NCBI RefSeq assembly: GCF_015751965.1
Contig: NZ_JADOVH010000002.1
Location: forward strand, 550,763-614,762
DNA length: 64,000 bases
Source: Frigoribacterium sp. CG_9.8
GTDB taxonomy: Bacteria; Actinomycetota; Actinomycetes; Actinomycetales; Microbacteriaceae
Reading direction: 5' to 3'
The number at the start of each line of letters is the position of its first letter. Position 1 is the stretch's first letter. Positions 8,017-48,436 of the stretch are shown here, one piece after another. Below the pieces are notes generated by a model that did not search any database, was not told where the DNA came from, and saw nothing but the letters and a program-made list of their open reading frames with translations. Position numbers and translations under genes: made by a program.

Positions 8017-8406
8017 ATGGACGACTCTCGGCCCGCGGATAACCGGTCACGGATCGAATCCGTTCTGGATGCCGAGCGAGCAGACCTGGAGCACAGCGCC
8101 GAGCGGACCCGCGCCGAGCGTGATGATGTGCGCGATGGGCGGGCCGACGCGTCGGCTGACGATGAGCACGATCCCGAGGGCTCGACTCTTTCATCGGAGT
8201 GGTCTCGAATCGAAGGTATCCGGCGCGGCCTTAGCGCGCGGCTGAAGGAGAACATGCAAGCCATGGCCAGGCTGACGGCCGGAACCTACGGTCTCTGCAC
8301 TCGGTGCGCAGGCAAGATCGGCGCTGCGCGTCTCACCGCCCGGCCGAGTGCAGGACTGTGCATCGACTGCGCGCGCGAGCTGGAGCGTGAGAAGTCTGGT
8401 GCGTGA
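8017..8406 (+). CDS. DksA/TraR-type C4 zinc-finger protein
   Basis: A 129-residue protein with a long charged helical N-terminus (likely coiled coil, residues about 10-85) and a C-terminal zinc finger, CTRC...CIDC, 18 residues between the pairs. This is the DksA/TraR layout; such proteins may reach into the RNA polymerase secondary channel, but no function can be assigned from sequence. The ATG follows a good AGGAG. The last residues (EREKSGA) and the stop are encoded by the first two units of a 16-bp tandem array, so the natural C-terminus has probably been changed by repeat expansion. Confidence 0.85.
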   Translation: MDDSRPADNRSRIESVLDAERADLEHSAERTRAERDDVRDGRADASADDEHDPEGSTLSSEWSRIEGIRRGLSARLKENMQAMARLTAGTYGLCTRCAGKIGAARLTARPSAGLCIDCARELEREKSGA

Positions 8407-8496
8407 GAACCCTGAAGCGTGAGAAGTCTGGTGCGTGAGAACCCTGAAGCGTGAGAACCCTGAAGCGTGAGAACCCTGAAACGTCAGAACCCTGAA
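8385..8496. repeat. Seven-unit 16-bp tandem array spanning the 3' ends of two convergent genes
   Basis: Seven consecutive 16-bp units. The main form is gcgtgagaaccctgaa; units 1 and 3 carry the variant ending gaagtctggt, and unit 7 begins acgtcag. The zinc-finger gene (+) stops in unit 2 (TGA 8404-8406) and hutI (-) stops in unit 7 (8484-8486). Confidence 0.95.
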
Positions 8497-9659
8497 ACGA
8501 TCGGGGGAGTGCGGATGCCACCGCGCCAGACTGCCGCCGTGAGCGGTACGCCTGGTCGATAGGCGAGGTGCACGACGGAGGGTGCATCGAGCACCTGGAG
8601 GTCGGCGCGGCCGCCAACACGGAGTGAGCCGACCGCATCCGACCCCGTATCGCGGCCGAGCGCGCGCGCACCTCCACGGGTCGCCGCCCACACGGCCTCG
8701 TCGATAGTGAGCCCCATCTGGAGCACTGCCACGGCAATGCAGAACGGCACCGATGTGGTGTACGAACTTCCCGGATTGCAGTTGCTGGCCAAGGCGATTT
8801 CGGCGCCGGCATCCAGTAGCAGTCGGGCGGGGGCGAGGGGCTGGCGGGTGGAGAGATCGCACGCCGGCAGGAGGGTGGCGACGGTCGATGACGAGGCGAG
8901 CGAGTCGATGTCATTGGCACTCAGGTGGTTGCAGTGGTCAACGCTCGCGCATCCCAGTTCGACCGCGAGTTCGACTCCGCCGCTGAAGCCGAGTTGGTTG
9001 CCGTGAAGTCGCAGTCCGAGACCAGCCACCAGGCCAGCGAGCAGCACTTCGCGGGACTCCTCCACATCGAAGGCTCCCACCTCGCAGAAGGCATCGATCC
9101 ATTGAACGTACGGCACAACCGCCGTGAGCATCGGGCCGGTCACCAGGTCGAGGTAGTCGCGGCGATCGATGCCGGCCGGCACGACATGTGCCCCGAGAAA
9201 GCTGACCGTATCGGCGACGGATGCTGCGACTCGTGCCGAGCGGCACTCGCTCTCGACATCGAGTCCGTAGCCGGTCTTGGTCTCAAGAAAAGTGGTGCCC
9301 TGGAGTTCTGCTTCGCGGCGCAGCGCCGTCGCAGTCTCGAGCAGCATCGCCTCGGATGCGCCGCGCGTCGCGGTGACAGTGGTTGCGATTCCGCCGGCCT
9401 CATAGCGTCGTCCGGCCATCCGGGCGTCGAACTCCGCGTCACGGGATCCCGCGAAGACCAGGTGGCTGTGCGAGTCGACCCAGCCAGGCAGCACCGCCCG
9501 GCCCGCGACGGAGGTGCGGATGTCGGCGGCCGGGGCATCCGCGGCCGACCCGATCCAGGCCACTCGAGAGCCGTCGATCACGAGGGCGGCGTCGTGGAGT
9601 CGCTGTCGATCACCGCACTGGGTGGTGAGTTCACCGATGTCGGTGATGAGTTCAGACAT
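8484..9659 (-). CDS. hutI: Imidazolonepropionase
   Basis: Third step of histidine breakdown: hydrolyses imidazolone-5-propionate to N-formimino-L-glutamate. It is an amidohydrolase-fold metalloenzyme of 391 residues. The metal-binding HSHLVFAGSR, the ETKTGYGLD stretch, LHGNQLG and the C-terminal NCNPGSSYT are all family signatures. It is the last gene of the hut operon, 18 bases after hutF. The last codons and stop lie inside a 16-bp tandem array shared with the convergent gene. Confidence 0.95.
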   Translation of the reverse strand: MSELITDIGELTTQCGDRQRLHDAALVIDGSRVAWIGSAADAPAADIRTSVAGRAVLPGWVDSHSHLVFAGSRDAEFDARMAGRRYEAGGIATTVTATRGASEAMLLETATALRREAELQGTTFLETKTGYGLDVESECRSARVAASVADTVSFLGAHVVPAGIDRRDYLDLVTGPMLTAVVPYVQWIDAFCEVGAFDVEESREVLLAGLVAGLGLRLHGNQLGFSGGVELAVELGCASVDHCNHLSANDIDSLASSSTVATLLPACDLSTRQPLAPARLLLDAGAEIALASNCNPGSSYTTSVPFCIAVAVLQMGLTIDEAVWAATRGGARALGRDTGSDAVGSLRVGGRADLQVLDAPSVVHLAYRPGVPLTAAVWRGGIRTPPIVSGF

Positions 9660-11006: not shown

Positions 11007-12770
11007 TCAGTTTTCCCAGAGTGGCACGCGGAGTCCGCGTTCGCGAGCGACCTCTGCCGCCCTCTCGTAGCCGGCGTCGACATGCCGCATCACCCCGGTG
11101 CCCGGGTCGTTGACCAGCACCCGCTCAATCTTCTGGCGCGCGAGTTCGGTGCCGTCGGCCACGATCACCTGGCCGGCATGGATGCTCCGGCCGATGCCGA
11201 CTCCGCCGCCGTGGTGGATCGAAACCCAGGTGGCCCCCGATGCGGTGTTGAGCAGTGCGTTCAGCAGAGGCCAGTCGGCGATGGCGTCCGAGCCATCCGC
11301 CATGCCCTCCGTCTCACGGTACGGGGACGCGACCGAGCCGGAGTCGAGGTGGTCGCGGCCGATCACGATGGGCGCGCTGAGCTCCCCGGACGCGACCATC
11401 TCGTTGAACTTGAGGCCGGCGAGGTGGCGCTCCTGGTAGCCGAGCCAGCAGATGCGAGCGGGAAGCCCCTCGAAATGAACCTTCTTGCCAGCCTCGGTAA
11501 TCCAGCGGTGCAGTTTCTTATCGTTTGGGAACAGCTCGAGGATGGCCCGATCTGTCGCCGCAATGTCCGCCGGATCTCCGGACAGCGCCACCCAGCGGAA
11601 TGGGCCCTTGCCTTCAGCGAAGAGGGGGCGGATGTAGGCCGGCACAAACCCGGGAAAGTCGAAGGCGCGGTCGTAGCCGCCGAGTTTCGCCTCGGCGCGA
11701 AGGGAATTTCCGTAGTCGAAGACCTCCGCCCCGGCATCCTGGAACCCGACCATGGCACGAACCTGCTTCGCCATGCTCGCGCGGGACAGCTCGGTCGACC
11801 CCTGTGGATCGTCGAGGCAGCGCTGCTTCCAGTCGTCGAGGGTGATGGCCTCGGGAATATAGGCGAGCGGGTCGTGGGCCGAGGTCTGGTCGGTGACGAT
11901 GTCGATGGGAGCGTGCCGCTCGAGCAACTCGGTGAAAACGGTCGCGGCGTTGCCCACGAGGCCGACCGACATGGGGATGCGCAGTTCCTTGGCCGCAATC
12001 ACCCGGCGCAGCGCATCGTCGAGGTTGTGAGCGATTTCATCGAGATATCCCTTCGCCATCCGGCGTTCGAGCCGGGAACGATCGATATCGACAATGAGAA
12101 CGACTCCGTGATTCATGGTGACGGCGAGAGGCTGGGCACCCCCCATCCCACCCGCACCGCCGGTGAGAGTGATCGTGCCGGCGAGCGTGCCGCCACTGTG
12201 CCGGTATTTTCCGTCTGCTCGGCTGGCGAGCTTGTCAGCCACGGCAGCGAAGGTCTCGTAGGTGCCCTGCAGGATGCCCTGGGTGCCAATGTAGATCCAC
12301 GAGCCCGCGGTCATCTGCCCATACATCGTGAGGCCGAGTTGTTCGAGTCGGCGAAACTCCGGCCAGGTCGCCCAGTCACCGACGAGGTTGGAGTTTGCAA
12401 TGAGCACCCGCGGCGCCCACTCGTGGGTGCGGAAGACACCCACCGGCTTACCCGACTGCACGAGCAGGGTTTCGTCGCTCTCGAGGGTTTCGAGCGTGCG
12501 GACGATCGCGTCATAACATTCCCAGTTGCGTGCCGCCTTGCCGGTTCCGCCATAGACCACGAGCTCGTCGGGGTGCTCGGCGACCTCCGGATCGAGGTTG
12601 TTCATCAGCATCCGCAGAGGGCCCTCGGTCTGCCAGCTTTTTGCCGTGAGGGTCGAGCCGCGGGAGGCGCGAACCGGCCGTGGGCCTGCCGGGCTCGGGT
12701 TTCGCGGGCTCGGGTTTTGCGCGGTGAGGTTCTGCGGGCCTGGGCTTTGGTGGGTGAGGTTCTTGGTCAT
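11007..12770 (-). CDS. hutU: Urocanate hydratase
   Basis: Second step of histidine breakdown: NAD-dependent hydration of urocanate to imidazolonepropionate. Glycine-rich NAD contact [12 protein letters not shown], the [20 protein letters not shown] active-site block and [10 protein letters not shown] are all visible. At 587 residues it is longer than the usual ~555 because the first ~35 residues are an added low-complexity tail built from five-residue repeats ([20 protein letters not shown]), encoded by a 15-bp tandem array. The conserved protein begins near [11 protein letters not shown]. Overlaps the end of hutH by 4 bases. Confidence 0.96.
12688..12762. repeat. 15-bp tandem array in the hutU 5' end
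   Basis: Five imperfect 15-bp units of the gcgggctcgggttt / gcggtgaggttc type lie in frame just after the hutU start codon and encode five-residue repeats. Confidence 0.85.
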
Positions 12771-14353
12771 CTGAGTTCTCCGATCACGGTACGGACGGCA
12801 GCGAGGATCCGACCAGAGGCAACGGCCTCGACGACGGATTCGATTTCGGGGGAGAGGTAGCGGTCGGGGCCCGGCCCCGCGACATCCCGGCGCACCTCGG
12901 CAAGGGCGGCGCCGGTTGCGCGGCCCGGGAGCAGAGGAGCGCGCAGGTCGAGTGCGCGGGAAGCGGTGAGGATCTCGATCGCCAGCACCCGAGTGAGTCC
13001 GTCGATCGCTCTCCGGAGCTTGCGAGCCGAGGCCCAGCCCATCGACACGTGGTCCTCCTGCATGGCCGACGAGGGAATCGAGTCGACGGATGCCGGCGCG
13101 GCGAGGCGCTTCAGCTCCGACACGATCCCGGCGGAGGTGTACTGGGCGATCATCAGCCCGGAGTCGACCCCGACTTCGAAGGCGAGAAACGCGGGCAGGC
13201 CCTGGCTGCGGGAGGGATCGAGCATCCGGTCGGTGCGGCGCTCCGACATGCTTGCGACATCCGCGATCACGATCGCCAGAAAGTCGAGCACATAGGCCAC
13301 CGGTGCGCCGTGGAAATTACCGTTCGACGCGACCCGGCCATCGAGGGTGACGACGGGGTTGTCCACCGCTGAGGCGAGCTCGCGCCCGGCGATCATCGTG
13401 GCATGGTCGACGGTGTCGCGGGCGGCACCGTGCACCTGGGGCGCGCAGCGCAGCGAGTACGCGTCTTGCACGCGAGTGCACTCCGGACTCTTATGGCTGT
13501 GCACGATCGGGGATCCGGCGAGCAGGTGGCGTAGGTTCGCCGCCGAGACCTGTTGGCCGCTCTGGGGGCGAAGGGCTGCGAGATCCTCAGCGAAAACCGC
13601 GTCGGTGCCGAGCAGCGCTTCGACGGACATCGCCGCGGACAGGTCGGCGGTGCTGAGGAGTCGGTCGAGGTCGTCAAGGGCGAGCACGAGCTGGCCGAGC
13701 ATCCCATCGGTCCCGTTAATGAGGGCAAGGCCCTCTTTCTCGGCGAGCAGAATGGGAGTGAGACCGGCCGCGGCCAGTGCGTCAGCGGCGGGCATGAGGA
13801 TGCCGTCGCGGTCGCGCACCGTGCCTTCGCCGAGGAGAGCAAGGGCGCAATGGGCGAGCGGTGCGAGGTCGCCCGAACAGCCGAGCGACCCGTATTCGCG
13901 AACGATCGGCGTGATGCTAGCGTTGAGAAGGCCGGCATAGGCTTCGGCCGTCTCGAGGCGGATGCCGGTGCGGCCGGTGAGCAGAGTCGAGAGCCGGAGT
14001 GCCATCAGCGCACGCACAGTTTCACGTTCGACCTCGGGTCCGGAGCCCGCGGCATGAGAGCGCACGAGGCTGCGCTGCAACTGGCGACGACGATCCTCCG
14101 CGATGAAGGTGGTCGCGAGCGCGCCGAAACCGGTCGAGATGCCGTAGTGGGGTTCGACGTCGCTGGCAAGGCGCTCGATCGTTTCCCGACTCGCGGTCAC
14201 TGCGGCTCGAGCCGCGTCGTCGATTTCGATCGGAACATCGTCACGCGCGATCGCGACCACCTGCTCTGCGGTGAGTGCGCCGATACCCATCAACACACTG
14301 CGTGCTGCGACTCGGCTGGTTTTGGTGGTGGTGCTGATCGTGGAATGCTCCAT
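12767..14353 (-). CDS. hutH: Histidine ammonia-lyase
   Basis: First step of histidine breakdown: removes ammonia from histidine to give urocanate. The self-forming MIO cofactor site reads [14 protein letters not shown], with Cys-Ser-Gly at about residues 159-161 instead of the common Ala-Ser-Gly. HYGISTGFG and [12 protein letters not shown] are further signatures. The start chosen, ATG at 14353 (MEHSTIS), gives 528 residues; open frame continues upstream but without homology, and a GGGAG lies about 12 bases ahead of this ATG. First gene of hutHUFI, divergent from the iclR gene. Confidence 0.95.
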
Positions 14354-14406
14354 GGCACCATCAGACTCCCTCACCACGGTGATGCGCCACATCGTTAGGC
14401 TGACCT

Positions 14407-14426
14407 CTGTCTCAGATACGAGACAG
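14407..14426. promoter_or_regulatory. Candidate IclR operator between hutH and iclR
   Basis: A perfect 7-bp inverted repeat, ctgtctc-N6-gagacag, sits in the 102-bp divergent region. Size and position suit a dimeric IclR-family regulator controlling both directions. Assignment is inference from position and symmetry. Confidence 0.5.
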
Positions 14427-14455
14427 TTGTCGATGCGGAAAACAGGGAAAGAGAA

Positions 14456-15730: not shown

Positions 15731-15732
15731 CG

Positions 15733-15839
15733 ACTCAGTGTGCCAGAACTCAGTGTGCCACAACGCAGTGTGCCAGAAGCACGCGTGCCAGAAGCACGCG
15801 TGCCAGTAGCCCCGTGTGCCAGTAGCCCCGTGTGCCAGT
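15733..15839. repeat. 15-16-bp tandem array upstream of the YchJ-like start
   Basis: About seven degenerate units of 15-16 bp sharing gtgccaga(a/g) lie directly upstream of the start codon of the YchJ-like gene, where its leader should be. The last two units are 16 bp (agccccgtgtgccagt). Confidence 0.85.
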
Positions 15840-17920: not shown

Positions 17921-18764
17921 TCGACCCGCTCTGAGCAATCGGTCGGTGCTCGGGCTGCCCCTTCTGGCATCCGAAATCTCGGTGCTGTTCCGCCGTCGCC
18001 GCACCTGGGCGATGCTTGCCTCTCTCGCTCTGATTCCGGTGCTGATCGCCCTTGCCGTGCGGCTCACCTCCTCCCGCCCCTCGACAGGACGCGGCCCCGC
18101 GTTTCTCGATCAGGTGAGCCAAAATGGCCTCTTCGTGAGTTTCGTCGGGCTGCTGGTCTCGGTGCCTCTGTTCTTACCGCTGACCGTCGGAGTCGTTGCC
18201 GGAGACACGATTGCGGGGGAGGCGAGTGCAGGCACCCTGCGGTATCTGCTAATCGCACCGGCCGGCCGGGTGCGGCTTCTCGTCGTGAAGTACGTAGCGA
18301 CCGCGGTTTTCTGCGTTGCAGGCACGCTCGCGGTGGCGGTCTCCGGCGCGATGATCGGCGCCGCACTGTTCCCGATTGGCCCGGTCACCCTCCTCTCGGG
18401 TGACAGCATCGCGGTGGGGGACTCGATCGTGCGGTCGCTGCTGATCGCCGCCTACATCAGCGTCTCGCTACTCGGACTCTCTGCGATCGGCCTGTTCATC
18501 TCCACGATGACGGACGTGCCGGTCGGAGCGATGGCCACCACGATTGTGCTGTCCGTCGTCTCCCAGGTGCTCGACTCGCTGCCGCAGCTCGACTGGTTGC
18601 ACCCGTGGTTGTTCAGCCATTACTGGCTCGGGTTCGCCGACCTATCACGTCAGCCCATCCTGTGGGATTCATTCGGCAGCAATCTGATTCTGCAGGCCGG
18701 ATATATCCTCGTTTTCGGGGCTCTCGCGTTTGGACGCTTCACCACAAAAGACATCCTCTCCTAG
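17907..18764 (+). CDS. ABC-2 type transporter permease
   Basis: 285-residue membrane protein with about six hydrophobic helices, starting after a basic cytoplasmic N-terminus (FRRRRTWAMLASLALIPVLIALAV) and with a conserved AGDTIAGEASAGTLRYLL loop that contacts the ATPase in ABC-2 permeases. Partner of the ATPase just upstream. Direction is most likely export. The stop is followed at once by a 16-bp tandem repeat. Confidence 0.9.
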   Translation: MSPADRPALSNRSVLGLPLLASEISVLFRRRRTWAMLASLALIPVLIALAVRLTSSRPSTGRGPAFLDQVSQNGLFVSFVGLLVSVPLFLPLTVGVVAGDTIAGEASAGTLRYLLIAPAGRVRLLVVKYVATAVFCVAGTLAVAVSGAMIGAALFPIGPVTLLSGDSIAVGDSIVRSLLIAAYISVSLLGLSAIGLFISTMTDVPVGAMATTIVLSVVSQVLDSLPQLDWLHPWLFSHYWLGFADLSRQPILWDSFGSNLILQAGYILVFGALAFGRFTTKDILS

Positions 18765-18812
18765 GCTCCGTTCTTCCTGTGCTCCATTCTTCCTGGGCTC
18801 CATCCTCTGGGG
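18765..18812. repeat. 16-bp tandem repeat immediately after the permease stop
   Basis: About three 16-bp units (gctccgttcttcctgt, gctccattcttcctgg, then a decayed copy) begin at the base after the stop codon. Confidence 0.8.
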
Positions 18813-18859
18813 CGGATGCTCGATTGGCCGGTGTCGGTCGGGTGGGGCATCCTGTTGCC

Positions 18860-19750
18860 ATGGCAGAACCGGTCGAACTGTGGTGGGCCAGACGCCAATG
18901 GTCGAAGGCGCTCGAGATCCCATATCCGGTCGGTTGTTATCGCAGCGACTGGGAGCGTCATCCGGTGCTGGTGCGCCAATATCGCCCCGACCTGAACTCG
19001 GGGATCACCCTGACCCAGGTGCCGCCAGCCGCCGAGGTCTATCTCGTCTGGCAGTGCGACTTCGGGCATCAATTCGTGGCAACCCCTGAGGAGCAACGTC
19101 AGCGACCCGGGCAGTCGAGGCGGCGGTCGACCTGGTGTCCCGAGTGCGCGGCGGGAGCGAGGCGCCCGCGTGCACCTGTACCGTCTCGCACTGTGTCGCC
19201 GGTGCGTTCACGAACCCGTCGCGTACCGGTTCGACAAATTTCGCCCCTTCATCCTGTGGGGGAGGCCGTCGCGGGGAAGTCTGCTGTGGGGGAGTCTCGT
19301 GTGGGGGAGGCCTTTTTCAGCGCTCTCGCTCCAACGCCGGCGTCGGCAGCCGAGGGCGACCTGCGGCATCGGCTCGCCCAGATATTCGACGTCGATTTCT
19401 CACTGAATGCGGTGCGGGTTGGCCGTGCGTTCTTCGCGCACCACGAGGTGTGGCCCGACATCGTGATCGCAGAGTTGCGGGTCGCGATCGAATACGACAC
19501 GACGGGCCGGGACGGTCTCGAACATGTCGGTCGACGCGAGGACACTGACCGGCGAAAAGATCGCCTCCTGCGCGCAGCCGGCTGGGAAGTCATTCGCATC
19601 CGGTGCGGAAAGCTGCAGCCCATCGGCCCGTGGGACATCTCTGCGCCGGGGGTCTCAAAGAAAACGGTGGGGCGGGTCATCGATCGGCTCTGCGAGATTC
19701 GCGGTGACCTAATCGTCGAGTGTTACCGCCGCAGATTATCCCTGACTTGA
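18860..19750 (+). CDS. Zinc-ribbon / DUF559-like nuclease-fold protein
   Basis: 296 residues in two parts. The N-terminal part has a treble-clef or zinc-ribbon layout, WQCDFGHQF...WCPECAAG (about residues 60-95). The C-terminal part (about 170-275) reads like a PD-(D/E)XK nuclease of the Vsr/DUF559 type: VWPDIVIAELRVAIEYD, then RKDRLLRAAGWEVIRIRCG. Between them is a linker containing four five-residue repeats (VGEAV, AGKSA, VGESR, VGEAF) encoded by a 15-bp array. The ATG at 18860 is taken because upstream frame overlaps the permease gene. Biological role unknown; nuclease activity is inference. Confidence 0.7.
   Translation: MAEPVELWWARRQWSKALEIPYPVGCYRSDWERHPVLVRQYRPDLNSGITLTQVPPAAEVYLVWQCDFGHQFVATPEEQRQRPGQSRRRSTWCPECAAGARRPRAPVPSRTVSPVRSRTRRVPVRQISPLHPVGEAVAGKSAVGESRVGEAFFSALAPTPASAAEGDLRHRLAQIFDVDFSLNAVRVGRAFFAHHEVWPDIVIAELRVAIEYDTTGRDGLEHVGRREDTDRRKDRLLRAAGWEVIRIRCGKLQPIGPWDISAPGVSKKTVGRVIDRLCEIRGDLIVECYRRRLSLT
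19256..19315. repeat. 15-bp in-frame tandem array in the linker of the zinc-ribbon protein
   Basis: Four 15-bp units of the gtgggggaggccgtc type separate the zinc-ribbon and nuclease-like domains. Confidence 0.85.
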
Positions 19751-21071: not shown

Positions 21072-23153
21072 TTAGACGCCCGGACTCGTGACGCCCGGAT
21101 TCGCAATGCCCGGATTCGCAACGGACGGCAGGTATCGCGCCCACCAGTCCAGCACGGCCTCGAAGCGCTGCACGCGGTGTCGTGGTCTTCCGCTGCGACT
21201 CAGCTCGTGATTCTCCCCCGGAAAGATGAGCAGTTCCGTCTCGACACCGTTGCGCTTCAACGCTGCGTAAAAGCGTTCGCCCTGGCTGAGTGGGCAGCGC
21301 AGATCGTCCTCCGAATGGATCACCAGCGTTGGAGTGGTCACCTGGCCCGACAGCGCCTGCGGACTCTGCTGACGCATCCGCTGCGGATCCGTACCGGTGT
21401 ATTCGTCGCTGAAGAACGAGCCGATGTCGGAGGTGCCGACAAAAGTCTCGGGGTCGAGGTAGCCGCGTTCGACGATCGCTCCGGCGAAACGGTGGTCATT
21501 GGCGATGATCCACGCGGTCAGATAACCGCCATACGAGCCGCCCATCACACCGATGCGCTCTCTGTCGAGTGCGGGGTGACGTGACAAAGCCCCCTCGAGG
21601 AAGTCGATCACATCCGTGAAGTCGACAGTGCCCATTCGCTGGCGCGTGGCACGTCCGTGCACCTCGCCATATCCGGCCGACCCGCGCGGATTGCACATCA
21701 CCACGGCGTAGCCCGCGTCGACATACACCTGCGCCTCGTCGAAAAATGAGACTCCCCACTGGGCGAATGGTCCGCCGTGAATAACCAGCAGCACCGGATG
21801 TGGTTCCCCTTGGTCGATCGGTGTCAGAACCCAGCCGTGCACATCGCTGCCATCGTGCGCGGTCACCGACAGCTCCTGAAGCGGAGTCACCCCGCCGCGG
21901 CGCAACCCCGCGGAAAAGTCGGTGAGCGGATGCGACCCGCTCGCGGTGACGAGACCGAGCTCACCCATCGAGGATGGGGTCGTGTAGGAGACCACGATCG
22001 TGTTTGCCCCGGTGCTGGCATTGTGGCTGGCCGCTGTTCCGTGCACTTCGAGATCGCCGGTGACGAGAGCGGTCACCGTGCCGTCGAGTGCGATCCGCAG
22101 CAGATGTACCCGCCCACGGTCGAGGCGGTGCACGAGGGCTCCCTCGGCTGTCACGATCAGCTCGCCGTCGAGCTGAACTGTGGCCGAATCGGTGAGCCGT
22201 CGCGCGGCCTCGGTTGCCGCATCCTGCACCCAGAGTTGATCTCCACGTCCGACGAAGTCGATGCCGCGCTCGCCCAGATCAGCACCGATGAACCACAGCT
22301 CGCCACTCGGAGAATATTCGACGCTCGAGATACCGTAGCGGCGGTGGTGGCCGGTGACCTGCACTGCGGCCGGTAGCTCCCCAGCAGGCGTTTCGAGAGT
22401 GAGCTCGTAGACGTTGTTGGCGAGGTCACGGTCACGATCGGGATGCCGCGCCGACACCACCGCGAGTGTTCGGCCGTCCGGCGAGAAGGCGAGAGCTCCA
22501 TGGTCGAAGTCTCCTTCGGTGAGCCGGCGCGGCAGGGGAACCCCGGTGGATGCGTCGGGCTCCGGATGCTCGGCCGAAGGTGCCGTCGGGTAGCCGGGCT
22601 CGTCATCCACGCTGGGCACATCGATGAGGAAGACCTGGCGACGCCGATCGGTCGTGTAGCCGAACCCGTTGGAGCGGTACTTGAGAGTGCTGATGCGACG
22701 GGGCGGCTCAGAACCCGGCCCGAGGTGCGCGACGGTGCCGTAACGTCCGTCCTCGGCGACCGCAGCGGTGAAGGCGATCTTGCGGGAGTCCGGGGACCAG
22801 CGCCAGATGCCGATGCCCAGTTTCTGATCGGTCAGCTGCACCGGCTCTCCGCCAGGTGCAGCCATGACGTACAGCTGTGCCGGACCGTCGGTTGGCGACC
22901 GGACAAACGCGAGTAAAGCGCCGTCCGGTGAGAACTGCGGATAAGAATCACTGATCCCGCGGGTGATCCGCCGCGCACCGGAGCCGTCGACATCGACACC
23001 GACATCGACACCGACATCGACACTCCACAGTTGCCCAACCGTGCGGTCCGCATCAAGATCCGGTCGCGAGACCGCCACGACAGCACGACTGCCATCCGGG
23101 TGGATCGTGGGGCGGGATACGGTGGACAGCAGGGGAAGATCTGAAGGCTTCAT
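21072..23153 (-). CDS. S9-family (prolyl oligopeptidase) serine peptidase
   Basis: Large cytoplasmic peptidase: an N-terminal beta-propeller (repeated blades such as SPDGALLAFV, SPDSRKIAF, SPDGRTLAVV) caps a C-terminal alpha/beta-hydrolase. The nucleophile is in GGSYGG; acid and base are expected in SEDDLRC and FPGENHELS. Start chosen is ATG at 23153 (MKPSDLPLL), preceded by GGGA and matching relatives; two further ATGs lie 9 and 18 bases upstream. Two tandem arrays change the protein: VDVG repeats in the first blade and three copies of the (A/T)(N/S)PG(I/V) repeat at the very C-terminus. Confidence 0.93.
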   Translation of the reverse strand: MKPSDLPLLSTVSRPTIHPDGSRAVVAVSRPDLDADRTVGQLWSVDVGVDVGVDVDGSGARRITRGISDSYPQFSPDGALLAFVRSPTDGPAQLYVMAAPGGEPVQLTDQKLGIGIWRWSPDSRKIAFTAAVAEDGRYGTVAHLGPGSEPPRRISTLKYRSNGFGYTTDRRRQVFLIDVPSVDDEPGYPTAPSAEHPEPDASTGVPLPRRLTEGDFDHGALAFSPDGRTLAVVSARHPDRDRDLANNVYELTLETPAGELPAAVQVTGHHRRYGISSVEYSPSGELWFIGADLGERGIDFVGRGDQLWVQDAATEAARRLTDSATVQLDGELIVTAEGALVHRLDRGRVHLLRIALDGTVTALVTGDLEVHGTAASHNASTGANTIVVSYTTPSSMGELGLVTASGSHPLTDFSAGLRRGGVTPLQELSVTAHDGSDVHGWVLTPIDQGEPHPVLLVIHGGPFAQWGVSFFDEAQVYVDAGYAVVMCNPRGSAGYGEVHGRATRQRMGTVDFTDVIDFLEGALSRHPALDRERIGVMGGSYGGYLTAWIIANDHRFAGAIVERGYLDPETFVGTSDIGSFFSDEYTGTDPQRMRQQSPQALSGQVTTPTLVIHSEDDLRCPLSQGERFYAALKRNGVETELLIFPGENHELSRSGRPRHRVQRFEAVLDWWARYLPSVANPGIANPGVTSPGV
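21075..21119. repeat. 15-bp array at the S9 peptidase C-terminus
   Basis: Three 15-bp units (gacgcccggattcgc and variants) directly before the stop codon encode repeated five-residue ANPGV-like units. Confidence 0.88.
22989..23024. repeat. 12-bp array in the S9 peptidase propeller
   Basis: Three near-identical copies of gacatcgacacc encode VDVG repeats in a surface loop. Confidence 0.88.
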
Positions 23154-23249
23154 CGTTCCCATGCTAGCCACCGCGACACAGATGCTATCGGCCGCGACAC
23201 AGGGCAGCCCAGAGCTGGCGGGAGAACCCCGACGCGCGCCCCGACAGGA

Positions 23250-25645: not shown

Positions 25646-26482
25646 GTGGTCGAGCACGGCCCGGCCGAGCACGGCCCTGTCGAGAACGGCCCTGTCGAGA
25701 ACGGCCCTGTCGAGAGTCTCAACGGGTTTTTTGATGGCCCGCTGCCCCGCATCTTTGCGCATCGGGGGTGGGCGGCGGATGCTCCGGAGAACACGCTTCT
25801 CGCCTTCGCGGCCGCGCTCGCACTCGGCATCACCCACTGTGAGACCGATGTTCACGCATCCGTCGATGGCGTCCCCGTCGTCAGCCACGATGCCGATCTC
25901 GCTCGCACAGCCGGGGTTGCCGGGCGCATCGACCAACTCTCGTTCGCCGAACTCCAGAAGATCGACCTTGGGCGTGGTCAGAGCTACCCGAGCCTGCAGG
26001 AGGCGCTGTGTGCGTTTCCCGAGGCTCGATTCAACATCGACCTGAAGTCGGACGGAGCGGTGGCGCCAGCCGTCGAGGCGATTCGTAGCGCACAGGCGAC
26101 GCACCGCGTGCTTCTGACCTCGTTCGACAATGCGCGCAGGCTGCGTGCGGTGCGATTGTTGCCGGGTGTTGCGACCTCCGCATCCGCCCTGCCGTTCGCC
26201 ATTGCCCTGCTCGCGGTGACGCTCGGAATCGTGCCACTCGCGCGGCACGTGCTTCGTGGCATGCAGGCCGTGCAGGTGCCAGAGCGAATTCGGGGGCTTC
26301 GCGTGGTCTCCGCCCGTTCGGTGCGGCTGCTGAAGAAATGCGGTGTGGAGGTGCACGTGTGGACGATCAACGATCCGGCAGCTATGACACGACTTCTGGA
26401 TCTCGGTGTCGATGCGCTCATCACCGATCGGCCGGATCTCGCCCTCGAGATCATCAGGGCCCGGCTCGCAAGCAGGGAGTAG
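25646..26482 (+). CDS. Glycerophosphodiester phosphodiesterase
   Basis: TIM-barrel phosphodiesterase of the GDPD family. Catalytic elements are the His in FAHRGWAADAPENT, the metal-binding CETDVH, and HDADL. A GTG start at 25646 follows GAGAGG. The first ~22 residues are five-residue repeats (VEHGP, AEHGP, VENGP, VENGP) from a 15-bp tandem array; the conserved domain starts only at FDGPLPRIFAHRG. There is a possible hydrophobic insert (LPFAIALLAVTLGIVPLARHV). Downstream of NfeD/SPFH. Confidence 0.9.
   Translation: MVEHGPAEHGPVENGPVENGPVESLNGFFDGPLPRIFAHRGWAADAPENTLLAFAAALALGITHCETDVHASVDGVPVVSHDADLARTAGVAGRIDQLSFAELQKIDLGRGQSYPSLQEALCAFPEARFNIDLKSDGAVAPAVEAIRSAQATHRVLLTSFDNARRLRAVRLLPGVATSASALPFAIALLAVTLGIVPLARHVLRGMQAVQVPERIRGLRVVSARSVRLLKKCGVEVHVWTINDPAAMTRLLDLGVDALITDRPDLALEIIRARLASRE
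25649..25708. repeat. 15-bp array after the GDPD start codon
   Basis: Four 15-bp units (gtcgagaacggccct type) start at the second codon and add an N-terminal tail. Confidence 0.9.
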
Positions 26483-32673: not shown

Positions 32674-32751
32674 CCGGCCTTCACGGCCCGCACCCCGCTC
32701 ACTGCGGGCAGGCTTCGTGCGGGACGGCTTAGTGGCGGTAATGGGCTATCG

Positions 32752-33018
32752 CTAGGGCTTAGCCGAGGGATGCGCGGAGTCGGTCGATTCGCGCACCTCT
32801 AACGGCGCGTGACTCTGCGACGCGTGACTCTGCGGTGCATGATTATGCGGCGCAGCGTCGGCGGGCGGTGCCACCTTCTCCTCCGCCTTGACCTCGTTCT
32901 TGAAAATCTTCATCGACTGTCCGACGCTCTTTGCGAGGCCTGGGAGCTTGGTGGCTCCGAAGAGGAGCACGACGATAACCAGAAGTACCAGGGCGTGCCA
33001 ACCGGTGAGATTTGCCAT
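32752..33018 (-). CDS. tatA: Sec-independent protein translocase TatA
   Basis: Pore-forming Tat component, 88 residues: short membrane helix (HALVLLVIVVLLFGATKLP), then the amphipathic helix with the FGATKLPGLAKSVGQSMKIF signature. The acidic/variable tail holds His/Pro-rich five-residue repeats (PHNHA, PQSHA, SQSHA) from a 15-bp array, so the tail length may vary between strains. Confidence 0.93.
   Translation of the reverse strand: MANLTGWHALVLLVIVVLLFGATKLPGLAKSVGQSMKIFKNEVKAEEKVAPPADAAPHNHAPQSHASQSHAPLEVRESTDSAHPSAKP
32804..32848. repeat. 15-bp array in the tatA tail
   Basis: Three 15-bp units of the gacgcgtgactctgc type, in frame in the unstructured C-terminal tail. Confidence 0.88.
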
Positions 33019-38460: not shown

Positions 38461-39474
38461 GTGCCAAACGCGGGAATGTTGAATGGGCGACTTCTGGTCG
38501 TCGCCTTCGAGGGCTGGAACGATGCGGGGGAAGCCGCAAGCGGGGCGGTCTCGATGCTCAAGGACCTGCTCGACCTGTATCCGATCGCCGAGATCGATGC
38601 GGAGCGGTATTTCGACTACCAGTTCAATCGGCCGACCGTGGCGCAGGATGATAAGGGCAATCGCCTGCTTATCTGGCCGACCGTTGTCACCTATGGGCCG
38701 ACACAGGTGCTGGGTCAGCGGCTGGCGGGTGCCGGCTCTGACGGTGCTGATGCTGCTGCTACTGGCGCTGCTGACGATGCTGACGCTGCTGGCGCTGCTG
38801 CTGGCGCCATCGGTGGAAACGCCTCGAACATCTACCTGCTGCTCGGCACCGAGCCATCGCGTAACTGGAAGAGTTTCACCGCTGAGATCATGGCCACCAT
38901 CACCGAGAACGAGATCACCGGCGTCGTGTTCCTCGGTGCAATGCTCGCCGATGTGCCGCACACTCGACCAATCTCGGTCTTCGTCGGCAGTGAGAATGTG
39001 CAGTTGCGCGCGCAACTCTCGGTGGAGAAGAGCACCTACGAGGGGCCGGTCGGCATCCTCTCGGTGCTCGGCGAGGCTGCGGAGAAGGCCGGGATTGCCA
39101 CTGTCTCGATCTGGGCATCCGTGCCGCACTATGTACACAATGCACCGTCGCCCAAAGCAACACTCGCGATCATCGACAAGCTCGAGGAGCTGATCGACGT
39201 GGTGATTCCGAGGGGGGAACTGGTGGACGAATCTGCTGCCTGGGAGGGCGGGATCGATGTGCTCGCGAGCGAGGACGAGGACATGGCGACCTACATCACG
39301 CAGCTTGAGCAGGCGAGGGACACGGTCGACTCCCCCGAAGCGAGCGGCGAGGCTATCGCGCAGGAGTTCGAGAAGTACCTGCGGCGCCGTGATGGCAAGG
39401 CGGATGGGCGCGGTGCGGGCGGACCTTCTGGTCCGCCGTCCCTTCCCCCCGACGACCGCGGCCCACGCGAGTAG
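38461..39474 (+). CDS. PAC2-family protein
   Basis: 337-residue PAC2 (proteasome assembly chaperone-like) protein, common in actinobacteria; molecular role in bacteria not known. N-terminal GRLLVVAFEGWNDAGEAASGAV and the later GVVFLGAMLADVPHTRP, SIWASVPHYVHN blocks are typical. Residues about 95-120 form an Ala/Asp-rich insertion encoded by a repetitive GCT-rich array. GTG start after gagggtagcga. A Gly/Pro-rich C-terminus ends before a long noncoding region. Confidence 0.9.
   Translation: MPNAGMLNGRLLVVAFEGWNDAGEAASGAVSMLKDLLDLYPIAEIDAERYFDYQFNRPTVAQDDKGNRLLIWPTVVTYGPTQVLGQRLAGAGSDGADAAATGAADDADAAGAAAGAIGGNASNIYLLLGTEPSRNWKSFTAEIMATITENEITGVVFLGAMLADVPHTRPISVFVGSENVQLRAQLSVEKSTYEGPVGILSVLGEAAEKAGIATVSIWASVPHYVHNAPSPKATLAIIDKLEELIDVVIPRGELVDESAAWEGGIDVLASEDEDMATYITQLEQARDTVDSPEASGEAIAQEFEKYLRRRDGKADGRGAGGPSGPPSLPPDDRGPRE
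38743..38802. repeat. 15-bp, GCT-rich array in the PAC2 gene
   Basis: Four imperfect 15-bp units such as gctactggcgctgct encode the low-complexity Ala/Asp insert of the PAC2 protein. Confidence 0.75.
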
Positions 39475-40180
39475 CGCCCGGCGGTATCCGGACACAGCCG
39501 TGAGTCGGACGTCCGCCGACCCCTACGTGCAGTCGTGTCCGAGTTGCCCGAAATGGTTGCTATCCAGTTGGGGATAGCGGCCATTTTGGGCAACTCGGCG
39601 GAACTGCCACTGCCGCAATCACCACTCCCGCGATCACCACTGCCAGGAATGCACAACTCCTGCAATCTGGGGATGCTTCGATGCCCACACCTGCAGCTCC
39701 GGGAGCGGCGATGCGTCCGCCAAAAATTGCAGGAGTTATGCAGGAAGACCATCGTCTGCTGTGCACCAGAAGCGCGCCAGAACTGCATCAGAAGCGCATC
39801 AGGAGCGCGTCAGAATTGCATCAGGAGCGCGTCAGCAATCCGCCGTGCACGATTCGCCTCGGTTTGTTTGAATGACCACAGCCTGCGGGACTAGCCTCCG
39901 CGATATCTTCCGCCGTGGGTGCAAAGCTGTGGTTGCACCTTCTACCGTGGTCGCATGGTCATGGGTGCACTTTTTGTCGTGGGTGAAAGGCCGTGGTGGG
40001 AGATATGGCTGCTCGCGGCAGCGGGGCATCGCGGACGGCGTTACGTCTCCTGCCGCGAGGCTTTTTCTCGGCCGTGACGTCTTTATGTGCGGGATTCACG
40101 TCCAGTAGCCTCGCGGTGAGCTACCCCTGAGCTGCCCCACAGCACGATACCCACTCGTGCCGGGCGGAGCACGCCGAAAG
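39475..40180. other. About 700 bases without a convincing gene, rich in inverted repeats
   Basis: Between the convergent PAC2 and mshC genes I see no credible gene. It holds a 27-nt inverted repeat (39539-39565 with 39572-39598, 24 of 27 positions paired), a second pair of 16-nt arms (39651-39666 with 39726-39741), imperfect tandem copies of gcatcaggagcgcgtcag near 39770-39840, a repetitive cgtgggtgca-rich stretch near 39915-39995, and a further inverted pair (gccgcgaggct / agcctcgcggt) near 40053 and 40110. Confidence 0.7.
39539..39598. repeat. Long intergenic hairpin (27-nt arms)
   Basis: Arms pair with three mismatches around a 6-base loop (agttgg). It could terminate the PAC2 transcript, but no T run follows. 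Confidence 0.75.
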
Positions 40181-41521
40181 TCAGGGTGCGAGACGGATGC
40201 CGAGCAGCGCGTCGAGCGCGTCGATTGCGGTCTGCGTCGCGGCTGCCCCACTGCGGATGTGAGCGTCGAACGCGGCGATCGCCCCTGGAGTGTCGAGGTC
40301 GTCGGCCAGGCGTTCGCGGAGCTCTGTAAGGAGAGCGCCGTCACCCGAAGCACCGCCCGAAGCACCGCCCGACACTACGCCACCCTCGACAAGAGCACTG
40401 TCACCCGAAGCGCTGTCACCCGAAGCACCCTTGACCTCACCCTCAATTGCCGTGGTCGCAGCCCACCCCATCCAGGAGATGAGCCGCTGCTCTGCGCTGC
40501 GGAGGTGGGCATCCGTCCACTCCCAATCGTTGCGATAGCGCTCAGATAGCAGGGCCAGCCGGATGGCCCGGGGATCCGCTCCGCCGGCGACTAGGCGCGA
40601 AACGAGCACGAGATTTCCAAGAGACTTGCTCATTTTCTCGCCCTCGTGGGCGACCATGCCGGCATGGGCATAGATTCGGGCAAGCGGATGCCCGGTGAGT
40701 GCGGCCGCATGACCCGCGCTGAATTCGTGGTGCGGAAACACCAGATCCCGCCCGCCGCCGTTCACCGTGAGCGGCGTCGGAAGGTGTGCGAGCGCGATAA
40801 CGGAGCACTCGATGTGCCATCCCGGTCGTCCGCGGCCGAGTGCAGACTCCCAGGCCGGCTCGCCGATGCGTTCCGAGCGCCAGAGCAGCGGATCGAGCGG
40901 ATCGCGTTTGCCTGCACGCAGCGGGTCTCCCCCACGTTCCGCGCTCAGGGCGAGCATGGTCGCTCGATCCAACGAACTCTCCTGCCCCAGGTGCCAGGCA
41001 GTTGCGGCAAAACCACTGTCGAAATAGACGTCATCGGCGGCACCCGCACTCGGCACGTGGTAGGCGGAGCCGTTTTGCAGCAGAACCTTCACCGCATCCG
41101 CCACATCCGGCACCACGTCGGTGACTGCCACATATTCGTCCGGCGGAATGATGCAGAGGTTCTCCATGTCACCACGGAATAGCTCGATTTGGGAGGCTGC
41201 GAGCTCCCGCCAGTCCACGCTGTCGCGCGCGGCACGTTCGAGCAGCGGATCGTCGATATCCGTGGTGTTCTGCACATAGCGCACCTCAAGGCCGGCATCC
41301 AGCCAGACGCGGATGAGGGTGTCGAAGGCGAGATAGGTCGCGGCGTGGCCGAGGTGAGTGGCGTCGTACGGAGTGATACCGCAGACATAGATACTCGCGA
41401 TGCCCGGCGTTGCGGGGTACGGACTCGCCTCAACCAGACTCTGAGTCGCCGAATCGAAGATGCGGGGAAAGACTCCGGTCCCGGGCAGGCGGGGAACTGT
41501 CGGACGGGACCAAGATTGCAC
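40181..41521 (-). CDS. mshC: Cysteine:glucosaminyl-inositol ligase (mycothiol synthesis)
   Basis: ATP-dependent ligase joining cysteine to GlcN-inositol in mycothiol synthesis, a class I aminoacyl-tRNA-synthetase-like fold derived from CysRS. HIGH-type HLGHAA near residue 57 and KMSKS near 300 are present; zinc ligands are expected at VCGITPYD and later His/Cys sites (HIECS). 446 residues; about 30 extra residues near 380-410 are Gly/Ser/Ala repeats (ASGDS, GGASG), encoded by a repetitive array. Presence points to a mycothiol-making actinobacterium. Confidence 0.94.
   Translation of the reverse strand: MQSWSRPTVPRLPGTGVFPRIFDSATQSLVEASPYPATPGIASIYVCGITPYDATHLGHAATYLAFDTLIRVWLDAGLEVRYVQNTTDIDDPLLERAARDSVDWRELAASQIELFRGDMENLCIIPPDEYVAVTDVVPDVADAVKVLLQNGSAYHVPSAGAADDVYFDSGFAATAWHLGQESSLDRATMLALSAERGGDPLRAGKRDPLDPLLWRSERIGEPAWESALGRGRPGWHIECSVIALAHLPTPLTVNGGGRDLVFPHHEFSAGHAAALTGHPLARIYAHAGMVAHEGEKMSKSLGNLVLVSRLVAGGADPRAIRLALLSERYRNDWEWTDAHLRSAEQRLISWMGWAATTAIEGEVKGASGDSASGDSALVEGGVVSGGASGGASGDGALLTELRERLADDLDTPGAIAAFDAHIRSGAAATQTAIDALDALLGIRLAP
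40335..40439. repeat. 15- and 12-bp array in mshC
   Basis: Degenerate units of gcactgtcacccgaa (15 bp) and gcaccgcccgaa (12 bp) encode the Gly/Ser/Ala insert near the MshC C-terminal helical domain. Confidence 0.8.
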
Positions 41522-43101: not shown

Positions 43102-43129
43102 GGTATTCGGTATTCGGTATTCGGTAATC
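43102..43129. repeat. 7-bp tandem repeat upstream of the permease
   Basis: Four units of ggtattc (the last ggtaatc) lie in the 206-base gap upstream of the permease start. No other structure seen in this gap. Confidence 0.85.
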
Positions 43130-43234
43130 GGGCGAGAACGCTTCTGGGCAGAATACTCCCCCGGTCGGGGGTCAGAATCCCGCAACCGTCCGCACCAACA
43201 GCACAAATAGTGGATGCTGGCGCGGCCTGGGGCC

Positions 43235-46780: not shown

Positions 46781-47146
46781 CACGAATCAAACGAATCGAC
46801 GGCAGTCCCATCGTTCTTCGCCGGGATTGTGAACACGTCGAGTTCGCCCACGTATAAGGGAAGGATTTGCCGCGTAATTTCCACGGCGGCTGCCAAGGCG
46901 ACCACTACGCAGGTGGAGGGCTTGCTTTAGGAGGCCTTAGGTTTAGTGCTCGGCGCGCTGCGCCTCTTGCGCAATGCCCGGCCAGGTAGCACGCGCGACG
47001 GCGAGGATAGACACACTGTTCCCTACCGTAGTTTTCGCCAACCTAGTGGGATCGGCTCGGGTGTTGGTGTGAAAGCTGCGAGATCCCGCCCGCGGATTCT
47101 CGACGTCCGCGTCAGCCAGTTCTTGTTGGTCAGCCGATAGGGGGTG
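46781..47146. other. About 370 bases with no recognised gene
   Basis: No ORF with credible start, codon usage and homology is seen. A short minus-strand frame (46711-46905) overlaps the NERD gene and looks like chance. I see no repeats or clear promoter. Confidence 0.6.
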
Positions 47147-48436
47147 CTAGAACGGGGGTGGGTCGGCTTCTCGGTTGTAGCCGGTGGGGCTTGTCCATAC
47201 TGCGCGCTCGGCGCCGGGTGGTTTTTCGACCTGCCATTTGGTTTGGTGTTTCATCGTGTGGTGTGTGCGACATCGGTGGTTGAGATTGTCTGCGGTGGTT
47301 GTTCCGCCGTTGGCCCAGGCGCGGGTGTGGTCGAGATCGCAGTGGGCTGCGCGTCGTCCGCAGCCGGGGAAGTCGCAGGTGACGTGCAGGGTGGCGAGCC
47401 ATCGTTTCAGTGTGGTGGGAACTCGGTACTGTCGCGGGTCAATTCCAACGATCGTGCCGGAGACCGGATCGGTGAGCAGCCGGGTGATCGAGGGCACTGT
47501 TGCGCACAGCCTGCGGGCGGTGTTGATATCGATCGGGCCGATACCTTCGAGTAGAGCTGGCTCATCAAAGTGGCCGAGCAGGCTCAGCACGGGGATGGTC
47601 AGCGCGACCGTGACCCCGACTGCCGGCCGCGTGCCTGCGCCGCTTGTGCCTGCGCTGCTTGTGCCTGCGCTGCTTGTGCATGCGCGGCTTGTGCATGGGC
47701 TGCTTGTGGCGGTGAGCAGGTCGCTGAGCACGTCGGCGCGCAGTTGGGCCATTGTGCGTTGTTCGTCGGATTCGGTAAATAGTCCGAATGCGAGGCCATC
47801 GAGGGCGGCGCCGACCATCGCTAGTTTCTCGGCAGACAGGTGTGCGTGCAGTCGGCCCATGCCGTCTCGGTCCACTTCGGTCCACACCCCACGGTGTGCG
47901 TTGGCCGCGCCATGGCGTTCGGTGAGAGTCTGCGCGTGCAGTTTCTCGCGCACGGCGCGAGCTGTGGTCCGGAATCTGGCCGGAGCAAGAGTGATGGCAC
48001 CCATGATCCTGGTCTGAAACTCGGCCCATAAATCTGCCGGTAATTCGCTGACTATGGATGCCGCTTCCCGGGCGTTCTGGGTTGAGATATCTCCCTCGGC
48101 AAACCGCGCCCACAACAGCGGCAACGACTGTTGGAGGGTTTGCGCGACCATGCCGTAGGCGCGAACTGTGGACTCTGCGAGGCTGAGGCGCACCGCAAGG
48201 TCAGCCGCGGCGGCGCGCTCGGCGAATTCGACGGCATCCCCGCGGAGCATGACGGCATCGATGAACACCTCGGGATGTTCGGCGGCTTCCCGCAGGGTGG
48301 CATCGATCGCACGGAACACTTCGGCTGATGCCCGCCACTGGGTGTGCTGCGCGAACTCGGCTTCGGCCATGCCGAACTCGACGCGAGTGTCAGCGTCGGC
48401 CATGTCGAGGAGGGGGTGGTGCATGAACACACTCAA
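47147..48436 (-). CDS. DUF222 / HNH endonuclease-signature protein
   Basis: 429-residue protein of the 13E12-repeat type, common in many copies in actinobacteria: N-terminal helical DUF222 and a C-terminal HNH motif, CDFPGCGRRAAHCDLDHTRAW...HRCRTHHTMKH. Probably a DNA endonuclease of selfish or unknown purpose. Residues about 245-270 are a Ser/Thr/Ala/Gly repeat stretch (SSAGT units) encoded by a 15-bp array. Sits alone on the - strand in the accessory-looking stretch. Confidence 0.88.
   Translation of the reverse strand: MSVFMHHPLLDMADADTRVEFGMAEAEFAQHTQWRASAEVFRAIDATLREAAEHPEVFIDAVMLRGDAVEFAERAAAADLAVRLSLAESTVRAYGMVAQTLQQSLPLLWARFAEGDISTQNAREAASIVSELPADLWAEFQTRIMGAITLAPARFRTTARAVREKLHAQTLTERHGAANAHRGVWTEVDRDGMGRLHAHLSAEKLAMVGAALDGLAFGLFTESDEQRTMAQLRADVLSDLLTATSSPCTSRACTSSAGTSSAGTSGAGTRPAVGVTVALTIPVLSLLGHFDEPALLEGIGPIDINTARRLCATVPSITRLLTDPVSGTIVGIDPRQYRVPTTLKRWLATLHVTCDFPGCGRRAAHCDLDHTRAWANGGTTTADNLNHRCRTHHTMKHQTKWQVEKPPGAERAVWTSPTGYNREADPPPF
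47632..47706. repeat. 15-bp array in the DUF222-HNH gene
   Basis: Five 15-bp units (gtgcctgcgctgctt and variants), in frame, lie between DUF222 and HNH. Confidence 0.9.

What the first reader, a model, noticed from the sequence alone, without database searches (positions are those of the whole stretch)
8385..47706. Scattered tandem arrays with a constant 15-16 bp period but unrelated unit sequences
At least eleven arrays share the same period but not the same sequence: 8385-8496 (16 bp x7), 12688-12762 (15 x5), 15733-15839 (15/16 x7), 18765-18812 (16 x3), 19256-19315 (15 x4), 21075-21119 (15 x3), 25649-25708 (15 x4), 27783-27827 (15 x3), 32804-32848 (15 x3), 40335-40439 (15, some 12), 47632-47706 (15 x5), and probably 38743-38802. 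One exception is 12 bp (22989-23024) and one 7 bp (43102-43129). They lie at start codons, C-termini and inter-domain linkers, or right after stop codons. Inside genes the period is always a multiple of three; outside it may be 16. Constant length with free sequence suggests a duplication mechanism that measures length (polymerase slippage or a loop of set size), not a spreading element, with selection keeping frame.
Basis: partly seen in the sequence, partly recalled or inferred. Interest (0 to 1): 0.85.

Follow-up and report, generated by a model that had tools for sequence, protein, structure and literature searches.

The report
Genome-wide in-place 15-base stutter repeats
The sampled third of this actinobacterial genome carries over a hundred short head-to-tail DNA repeats per million bases, most with units of 12 to 18 bases and unrelated sequences, about six times as many as a same-genus relative; they probably arise when the copying machinery slips on tiny pre-existing repeats, and inside genes nearly all of them keep the reading frame.

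Summary
The arrays are real and genome-wide. 51 systematic stretches (0.98 Mb) plus the window hold 131 strict arrays (125/Mb), against 21/Mb in same-genus G005. Units are mostly unrelated. The period is preferred, not constant: 24 of 43 arrays with four or more copies have period 15, and 40 fall in 12-18. Inside genes 49 of 49 strict arrays are multiples of three, elsewhere 42 of 82. Homologues show growth in place: two arrays of the S9 peptidase are two-unit insertions absent from 10 of 10 aligned relatives; the GDPD array has four units, against two in a 96% identical protein. Two-copy duplications carry junction homology (13 of 19 with 3 nt or more; control 8%), and adjacent copies are more alike than distant ones. 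This fits ABA-to-ABABA slippage plus expansion, filtered by selection. Ku, LigD and Prim-Pol have no match here, against end-joining fill-in; NucS and PolA are intact. No repair gene tested explains the density. Constant-size, variable-sequence repeats are described in bacteria (20-21 and 52 nt); a 15-nt class would be a new variant.

The parts
8380..8496 (.). 16-bp x7.3 array across the facing 3' ends of ORF 8017-8406 (+) and the HutI-like gene 8484-9659 (-); G005 is 96 bp (6x16) shorter here
12690..12762 (-). 15-bp array, 2.1 clear copies plus degenerate ones, N-terminal codons of urocanate hydratase gene 11007-12770
15736..15838 (.). mixed 15/16-bp array in a stretch called intergenic, before the gene called at 15912
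18759..18803 (+). 16-bp x2.8 array spanning the stop codon of gene 17907-18764 (weak match to a lantibiotic-immunity ABC permease family)
19255..19309 (+). 15-bp x3.7 degenerate array inside ORF 18605-19750, after its DUF4379 stretch
21075..21123 (-). 15-bp x3.3 array, C-terminus of S9 peptidase; 10 extra residues absent from 10 of 10 aligned relatives
22988..23023 (-). 12-bp x3.0 array, N-terminal part of the same S9 peptidase; 8 extra residues absent from 10 of 10 aligned relatives
23161..23202 (-). 21-bp x2.0 duplication at the start of the S9 peptidase gene; G005 holds part of one copy
25649..25715 (+). 15-bp x4.5 array directly after the start codon of the GDPD gene 25646-26482; two units in relatives P0001 and P0002
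27797..27829 (-). 15-bp x2.2 array, C-terminal end of the Lnt-like gene 27750-29399
32703..32734 (.). 15-bp x2.1 array between the tatC-like gene and the next called gene
32806..32834 (-). 15-bp x1.9 array (third copy degenerate) in called gene 32752-33018 beside the tatC-like gene; G005 is 30 bp shorter
38749..38800 (+). CTG-rich 27/9/3-bp repeat in called gene 38476-39474; not a clean 15-bp array
39607..39667 (.).
39763..39835 (.).
40344..40428 (-). 12-bp x2.4 and 15-bp x2.3 arrays near the C-terminus of the cysteinyl-tRNA-synthetase-like gene 40181-41521
43102..43131 (.). 7-bp x4.3 intergenic array
47631..47708 (-). 15-bp x5.2 array in DUF222 gene 47147-48436; a gene of the own genome in L032 has the same unit at the same place

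Best explanation
The arrays are in-place tandem duplications that likely arise by strand slippage between short direct repeats (ABA becomes ABABA) and likely grow by further slippage, one or a few units at a time. Shown: mostly unrelated units, in-frame periods in genes, two-unit insertions relative to homologues, junction homology in two-copy duplications, and adjacent copies more alike than distant ones. Inferred: that a nascent strand or unremoved flap re-anneals to an upstream repeat during replication; that the 12-18 window, peaking at 15, reflects units long enough to hold a misaligned strand yet short enough to loop out; and that purifying selection removes most arrays from gene bodies. 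What raises the density in this lineage is not shown.
For: 131 strict arrays in 1.044 Mb against 0 in triplet shuffles of the same stretches; 5.9-fold the density of G005. 13 of 19 exact two-copy duplications have 3 nt or more of junction homology, against 7.7% of artificial duplications; leaving out the 7 whose homology exceeds half a unit, which may be worn third copies, 6 of 12 (p 1e-4). S9 peptidase: +8 aa (2x12 bp) and +10 aa (2x15 bp) here, neither in 10 of 10 aligned relatives (120 were listed). GDPD: 4 pentapeptides here, 2 in P0001 (96%) and P0002, none in the other 8 aligned. L050:13845 has two copies of an 18-bp unit holding the stop codon where G005 has one; L048:15953 has one copy more than G005. 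10 of 47 gaps between aligned flanks differ from G005 by an exact positive multiple of the period. Adjacent copies more alike in 26 of 36 arrays, less in 6. 49 of 49 strict in-gene arrays in frame against 42 of 82 elsewhere. 0.60-0.71 arrays per kb intergenic against 0.13 in genes. Print: ABA-to-ABABA insertions, one with a 16-bp unit and 8-bp A, in flap-endonuclease-less yeast (PMC5677150, passages); M. smegmatis repeat deletions that need neither HR, NHEJ nor SSA (PMC3519483, passages including the abstract); NucS does not correct short indels (PMC8228993, passages).
Against: 34 of the 47 gaps differ by something other than a whole number of units (G005 is the longer in 8) and 3 do not differ, so many sites are too diverged to show the step; one of the 10 exact ones (L041) may be against a paralogue. 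6 of 19 two-copy duplications have no junction homology, and it is rarer in G012 (2 of 8) and in G005 plus G004 (4 of 11). 10 of 111 in-gene arrays at score 50 or more are not multiples of three. Slippage alone does not explain why the density is high here and in G012 but low in G005, nor why noncoding arrays with four or more copies peak at 15 (10 of 26). No strand bias with transcription or GC skew was found, and edge copies are not more worn than inner ones. Copy number within one species could not be tested.
Confidence: 0.62

Rival explanations
1. Ordinary background: G+C-rich actinobacteria all make such minisatellites, and this lineage only keeps more of them because selection is relaxed.
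For: Named actinobacteria also have them (35-50 strict arrays per Mb), with similar junction homology (9 of 16). Own proteins have 1.13-1.47 times as many lineage changes as those of G005 with five outgroups (against G004 the ratio is 0.8, 1.28 and 2.24 on 3-4 proteins each), and called coding fraction is lower (0.836 against 0.89).
Against: Per Mb of each class the density is still 5.4 (coding) and 4.3 (noncoding) times that of G005, and the period is tighter (63 of 80 noncoding in 12-18 against 12 of 37 in named actinobacteria, p 3e-6).
Confidence: 0.22
2. A lineage-specific repair change raises the duplication rate, for example loss of Ku, LigD and the stand-alone LigD-type Prim-Pol, leaving short gaps and ends to slippage-prone synthesis.
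For: None of the three has a match in the own genome (99.98% complete); all match in G005, G004, G012 and G008. The stand-alone Prim-Pol gene is missing at its syntenic place, where two arrays now lie.
Against: G012 has all three and is as dense (138/Mb); G015 lacks them and is not (21/Mb). Ku has no match in 44 of 120 family genomes, the own one included. Absence of NHEJ had no influence on direct-repeat deletions in M. smegmatis (PMC3519483, abstract).
Confidence: 0.1
3. The repeat size is selected for a function, such as periodic protein binding or small RNAs, as proposed for the 20-21 and 52 nt repeats of other bacteria.
For: Published for those sizes (PMC8161180, parts 1-2 and passages). 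Noncoding units are enriched in ACTG/CAGT (31 of 122 arrays against 11.7 expected) and CTGA (29 against 13.3).
Against: Arrays occur in frame inside many unrelated genes, show no strand preference and are missing in homologues where this was looked at. Part of the CTGA excess may come from units that include stop codons (inference).
Confidence: 0.04
4. Fill-in of staggered double-strand breaks by non-homologous end joining duplicates the overhang.
For: It would give tandem duplications of preferred length (inference).
Against: Ku and LigD have no match, and overhang fill-in needs no junction homology, which is present.
Confidence: 0.02

Closest known systems
[quoted passage not shown] PMC8161180, parts 1-2 and passages; PMC6749651, part 1)
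   Same: Many arrays per genome, preferred unit size, unrelated sequences, present in some species and few in others
   Different: Described sizes are 20-21(-23) and 52 nt; here the mode is 15 and the spread 12-18. 17 of 43 arrays with four or more copies lie inside genes. The authors favour function; the evidence here favours mutation
Bacterial minisatellites / VNTRs
   Same: Head-to-tail units of 7-60 bp, copy number differing between relatives
   Different: Density: 40/Mb with at least 4 copies and unit of 10 or more (39 in 0.98 Mb), against at most 23/Mb among bacterial replicons of the published Table 1 and group medians of 0-3/Mb (PMC6749651; other software, so only roughly comparable; Methanosarcina archaea reach 89/Mb there)
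ABA-to-ABABA insertions of rad27 (FEN1) deletion yeast (PMC5677150, passages)
   Same: Short direct repeat A at the junction, insertion of A+B, units such as 16 bp with 8-bp A
   Different: The PolA 5' nuclease domain is present here and the protein intact, and the absence of a stand-alone homologue is shared with low-density G005

Membership tests
Constant-size, variable-sequence bacterial tandem repeats | Unit size 20-21 or 52 nt | tested here: not met
   24 of 43 arrays with four or more copies have period 15; none has 20-21 or 52
Constant-size, variable-sequence bacterial tandem repeats | Size constant within about 1 nt across arrays | tested here: not met
   40 of 43 fall in 12-18, only 30 in 14-16
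Constant-size, variable-sequence bacterial tandem repeats | Several unrelated unit sequences in one genome | tested here: met
   102 of 275 arrays share an 11-mer with another array, but only 9 pairs share six or more 11-mers, six of these pairs within one gene
Constant-size, variable-sequence bacterial tandem repeats | Characteristic short sequence in all repeats of a species | tested here: inconclusive
   ACTG/CAGT in 31 of 122 noncoding arrays against 11.7 expected: enriched, not general
Minisatellite / VNTR | Copy number varies between close relatives | tested here: met
   GDPD 4 against 2 units; L048:15953 one copy more than G005
Minisatellite / VNTR | Copy number varies between strains of one species | not testable with these tools
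   one genome per species held
FEN1/PolA flap-defect duplications | Direct repeat at the junction (ABA to ABABA) | tested here: met
   13 of 19 with 3 nt or more against 7.7%; 6 of 12 when possible worn third copies are left out
FEN1/PolA flap-defect duplications | Flap endonuclease lost | tested here: not met
   PolA 5' nuclease domain present, protein 93.7% identical to G005
End-joining fill-in duplications | Ku and LigD present | tested here: not met
   no match for Ku, LigD_N or LigD_Prim-Pol
Mobile or dispersed repeat family | Shared sequence between sites | tested here: not met
   exceptions are one gene with 36-bp repeats, a DUF222-type pair and two other pairs

The most novel reading that the evidence does not exclude
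Bacteria have a third size class of constant-size, variable-sequence tandem repeats, about 15 nt, made by a replication process whose gap or flap length acts as the ruler; the 20-21 and 52 nt classes would be the same process with other ruler settings, so that the enigmatic repeat sizes are a mutational signature of each lineage's replication and repair machinery, not a function.
Probability: 0.15. Interest if true: 0.8.

Novelty: new variant of a known kind. Interest (0 to 1): 0.55.

Why it matters
Constant-size repeats of variable sequence are an open puzzle in bacterial genomics and have been explained by unknown functions. A genome in which the same length preference appears inside genes (filtered by frame), outside genes, and as unit-wise growth relative to homologues points to a mutational origin and makes it testable. 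Such arrays would also keep adding short in-frame tails and linkers to proteins.

Tried and rejected
Mobile element: units share almost no sequence. End-joining fill-in: Ku, LigD and Prim-Pol have no match. Hairpin-held loop: noncoding units fold less well than shuffled ones. Loss of NucS: present and 92% identical to G005; G012 has no NucS match and is dense, but the own genome has both NucS and density. Loss of PolA nuclease, ExoVII or Y-family polymerases: present as in G005. DnaE1: only the first PHP motif (LHVHS) was checked and is present. Transcription or replication strand: no bias. Ku loss as sole cause: G015 (no Ku) 21/Mb, G012 (Ku) 138/Mb. Same-genus G003 and G007: too little DNA (13.5 and 22.2 kb; 1 and 0 strict arrays). 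Edge-versus-core divergence of arrays: no difference.

Limits: genes were called by a home-made codon model, which starts the gene around 19255 too late; about a third of the genome was sampled, not the whole; TRF densities depend on G+C content (loose counts are high in 73% G+C genomes); several relatives were sampled with only 20-80 kb. G005 is the closest of the well-sampled genomes by DNA identity (about 80%), not a sister strain.
Full report
Observation. Tandem Repeats Finder reports repeats at all 14 places named. At score 50 or more the window holds 20 arrays, 10 of period 15 and two of 16. Several are weaker than stated (12690, 27797, 32806) and 38749 is not a clean 15-bp array; four others were missed.

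The window is the end of contig C2 of a 2.85 Mb genome. A scan for relatives of its cysteinyl-tRNA-synthetase-like protein ranks Curtobacterium and Cryobacterium records among the first (family Microbacteriaceae, recalled).

Genome-wide test. I took 51 stretches, about every third 20 kb, 982,288 bases. The period histogram peaks at 15: 82 of 352 arrays at score 40 or more, next 12 (45), 18 (39) and 14 (28). Strict arrays (score 60 or more, 2.7 copies or more, period 7 or more): 123 in the sample and 8 in the window, 125/Mb; 100 of the 131 have periods 12-18. Triplet-shuffled controls of the same stretches gave 0. Relatives by the same rule: G012 138/Mb (22 in 160 kb), G008 62, G019 50, G004 46, G016 25, G029 25, G005 21 (9 in 420 kb), G015 21, G014 12, and G013, G017 and G018 0; several of these samples are only 20-80 kb. 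Named Microbacteriaceae-rich loci L053-L076 50/Mb and other actinobacteria 35/Mb. Own against G005: 5.9-fold, p 6e-11. With four or more copies and units of 10 or more: 39 in the sample and 4 in the window; 24 of these 43 have period 15 and 40 fall in 12-18.

Coding and noncoding. Of 285 arrays at score 50 or more, 10 with periods under 7 were dropped, leaving 275: 111 inside called genes, 107 intergenic, 57 straddling. Strict arrays inside called genes: 49 of 49 multiples of three, 28 of them 15. Intergenic: 25 of 53; straddling gene ends: 17 of 29; Fisher p 9e-11. At the looser score 50 cut, 101 of 111 inside genes are multiples of three. A second gene call gave 51 strict arrays inside (58/Mb) and 80 elsewhere (466/Mb), against 11 and 108/Mb in G005. 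Noncoding periods run from 8 to 41, 63 of 80 within 12-18; in named actinobacteria 12 of 37. Among noncoding arrays with four or more copies, 10 of 26 have period 15 although no frame is at stake (p 3e-4 against an even spread over 10-18). Thus there is a soft length preference, and frame selection sharpens it inside genes. 22 of 49 strict in-gene arrays lie within 90 nt of a gene end, against 19% expected. Noncoding arrays lie nearest a stop codon (97, median 6 nt) more often than a start (55, median 43 nt).

Origin of single arrays. The S9 peptidase (21072-23171) carries two: relative to 10 of 10 aligned homologues (of 120 listed) it has 8 extra residues in an N-terminal stretch (2x12 bp) and 10 at the C-terminus (2x15 bp); the C-terminal ones repeat the native ANPG-like end. 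The GDPD array (25649-25715) encodes four pentapeptides; P0001, 96% identical, and P0002 have two, and the other eight aligned have none (120 listed). At L050:13845 an 18-bp unit containing the stop codon is doubled where G005 has one copy; at L048:15953 the own genome has one copy more than G005. Of 275 arrays, 47 have both flanks in fetched G005 DNA; the length difference is an exact positive multiple of the period in 10 (one, in L041, may be against a paralogue), zero in 3, and otherwise in 34, G005 being the longer in 8 of these.

Mechanism. Exact two-copy duplications in the own stretches have 3 nt or more of junction homology in 13 of 19 cases (mean 6.2 nt), against 7.7% (mean 0.8) for artificial duplications. 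In 7 of the 13 the homology exceeds half a unit and may be a worn third copy; without them it is 6 of 12, p 1e-4. The same is seen in named actinobacteria (9 of 16), less in G005 plus G004 (4 of 11) and G012 (2 of 8). Adjacent copies are more alike than distant ones in 26 of 36 arrays and less alike in 6; edge and inner copies do not differ. Units fold no better than shuffled ones, and there is no strand bias with transcription or GC skew. This is the ABA-to-ABABA pattern described in flap-endonuclease-deficient yeast, with an example of a 16-bp unit and 8-bp repeat (PMC5677150, passages). In M. smegmatis, deletion between direct repeats needs neither HR, NHEJ nor SSA, and loss of HR raised it (PMC3519483, passages including the abstract); NucS does not correct short indels (PMC8228993, passages). 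The slippage step itself is inferred.

Repair genes. NucS (92.2% identical to G005) and PolA (93.7%) are intact; ExoVII and two Y-family matches are present as in G005. Ku, LigD_N and LigD-type Prim-Pol have no match in the own genome but match in G005, G004, G012 and G008. G005 has its stand-alone Prim-Pol between 2,935,201 and 2,936,526; the own genome aligns on both sides and has 409 bp there with a 36-bp and an 8-bp array. This argues against end-joining fill-in as the source and offers a candidate, but G012 (has the genes, dense) and G015 (none, sparse) speak against it as sole cause. The stand-alone 5'-nuclease homologue is absent here but equally in G005.

Comparison with print. Subirana and Messeguer describe bacterial tandem repeats of constant size but variable sequence, only 20-21 or 52 nt in their data, and propose functions (PMC8161180, parts 1-2 and passages). 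Their survey's Table 1 lists at most 23 satellites per Mb in bacterial replicons (89 in an archaeon), with group medians of 0-3/Mb (PMC6749651, part 1; other software). The listings of my searches for tandem repeats in Microbacteriaceae, Actinobacteria and bacteria at large showed no report of a 15-nt class (listings only, subscription journals mostly not held). Verdict: a new variant of a known kind, most likely mutational.

Noticed in passing
L050:1848-2256 (own genome C6) against G005:C1:2935201-2936526: The stand-alone LigD-type Prim-Pol gene of G005 is missing at the syntenic place; two tandem arrays lie in the remaining 409 bp.
   Followed up: partly
own genome: No Ku, LigD_N or LigD_Prim-Pol match, while G005, G004, G012 and G008 have them; Ku has no match in 44 of 120 family genomes, own included.
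   Followed up: partly
G012: No NucS match in this genome (96% complete, 12% contamination), which has the highest strict array density sampled.
   Followed up: no
window 12767-15097: Histidine ammonia-lyase ORF has about 270 residues before the lyase match; the start may be misread or it is an extension.
   Followed up: no
L015:2717-3079: A run of 18/36-bp repeats inside one large called gene (1412-3442), encoding RPARTERP-like repeats.
   Followed up: no
window 47147-48436 and L032:17998-19251: Two genes of similar size share the same 15-bp unit at the same array position, so this array predates or was copied with the gene; only the window one was tested for DUF222.
   Followed up: partly
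own genome sample: G+C is 63% against 67% in G005, and proteins show 1.13-1.47 times as many changes as in G005, hinting at relaxed selection or a mutational shift.
   Followed up: partly
noncoding arrays of the sample: ACTG/CAGT and CTGA are enriched in units (31 against 11.7 and 29 against 13.3 expected of 122 arrays).
   Followed up: partly
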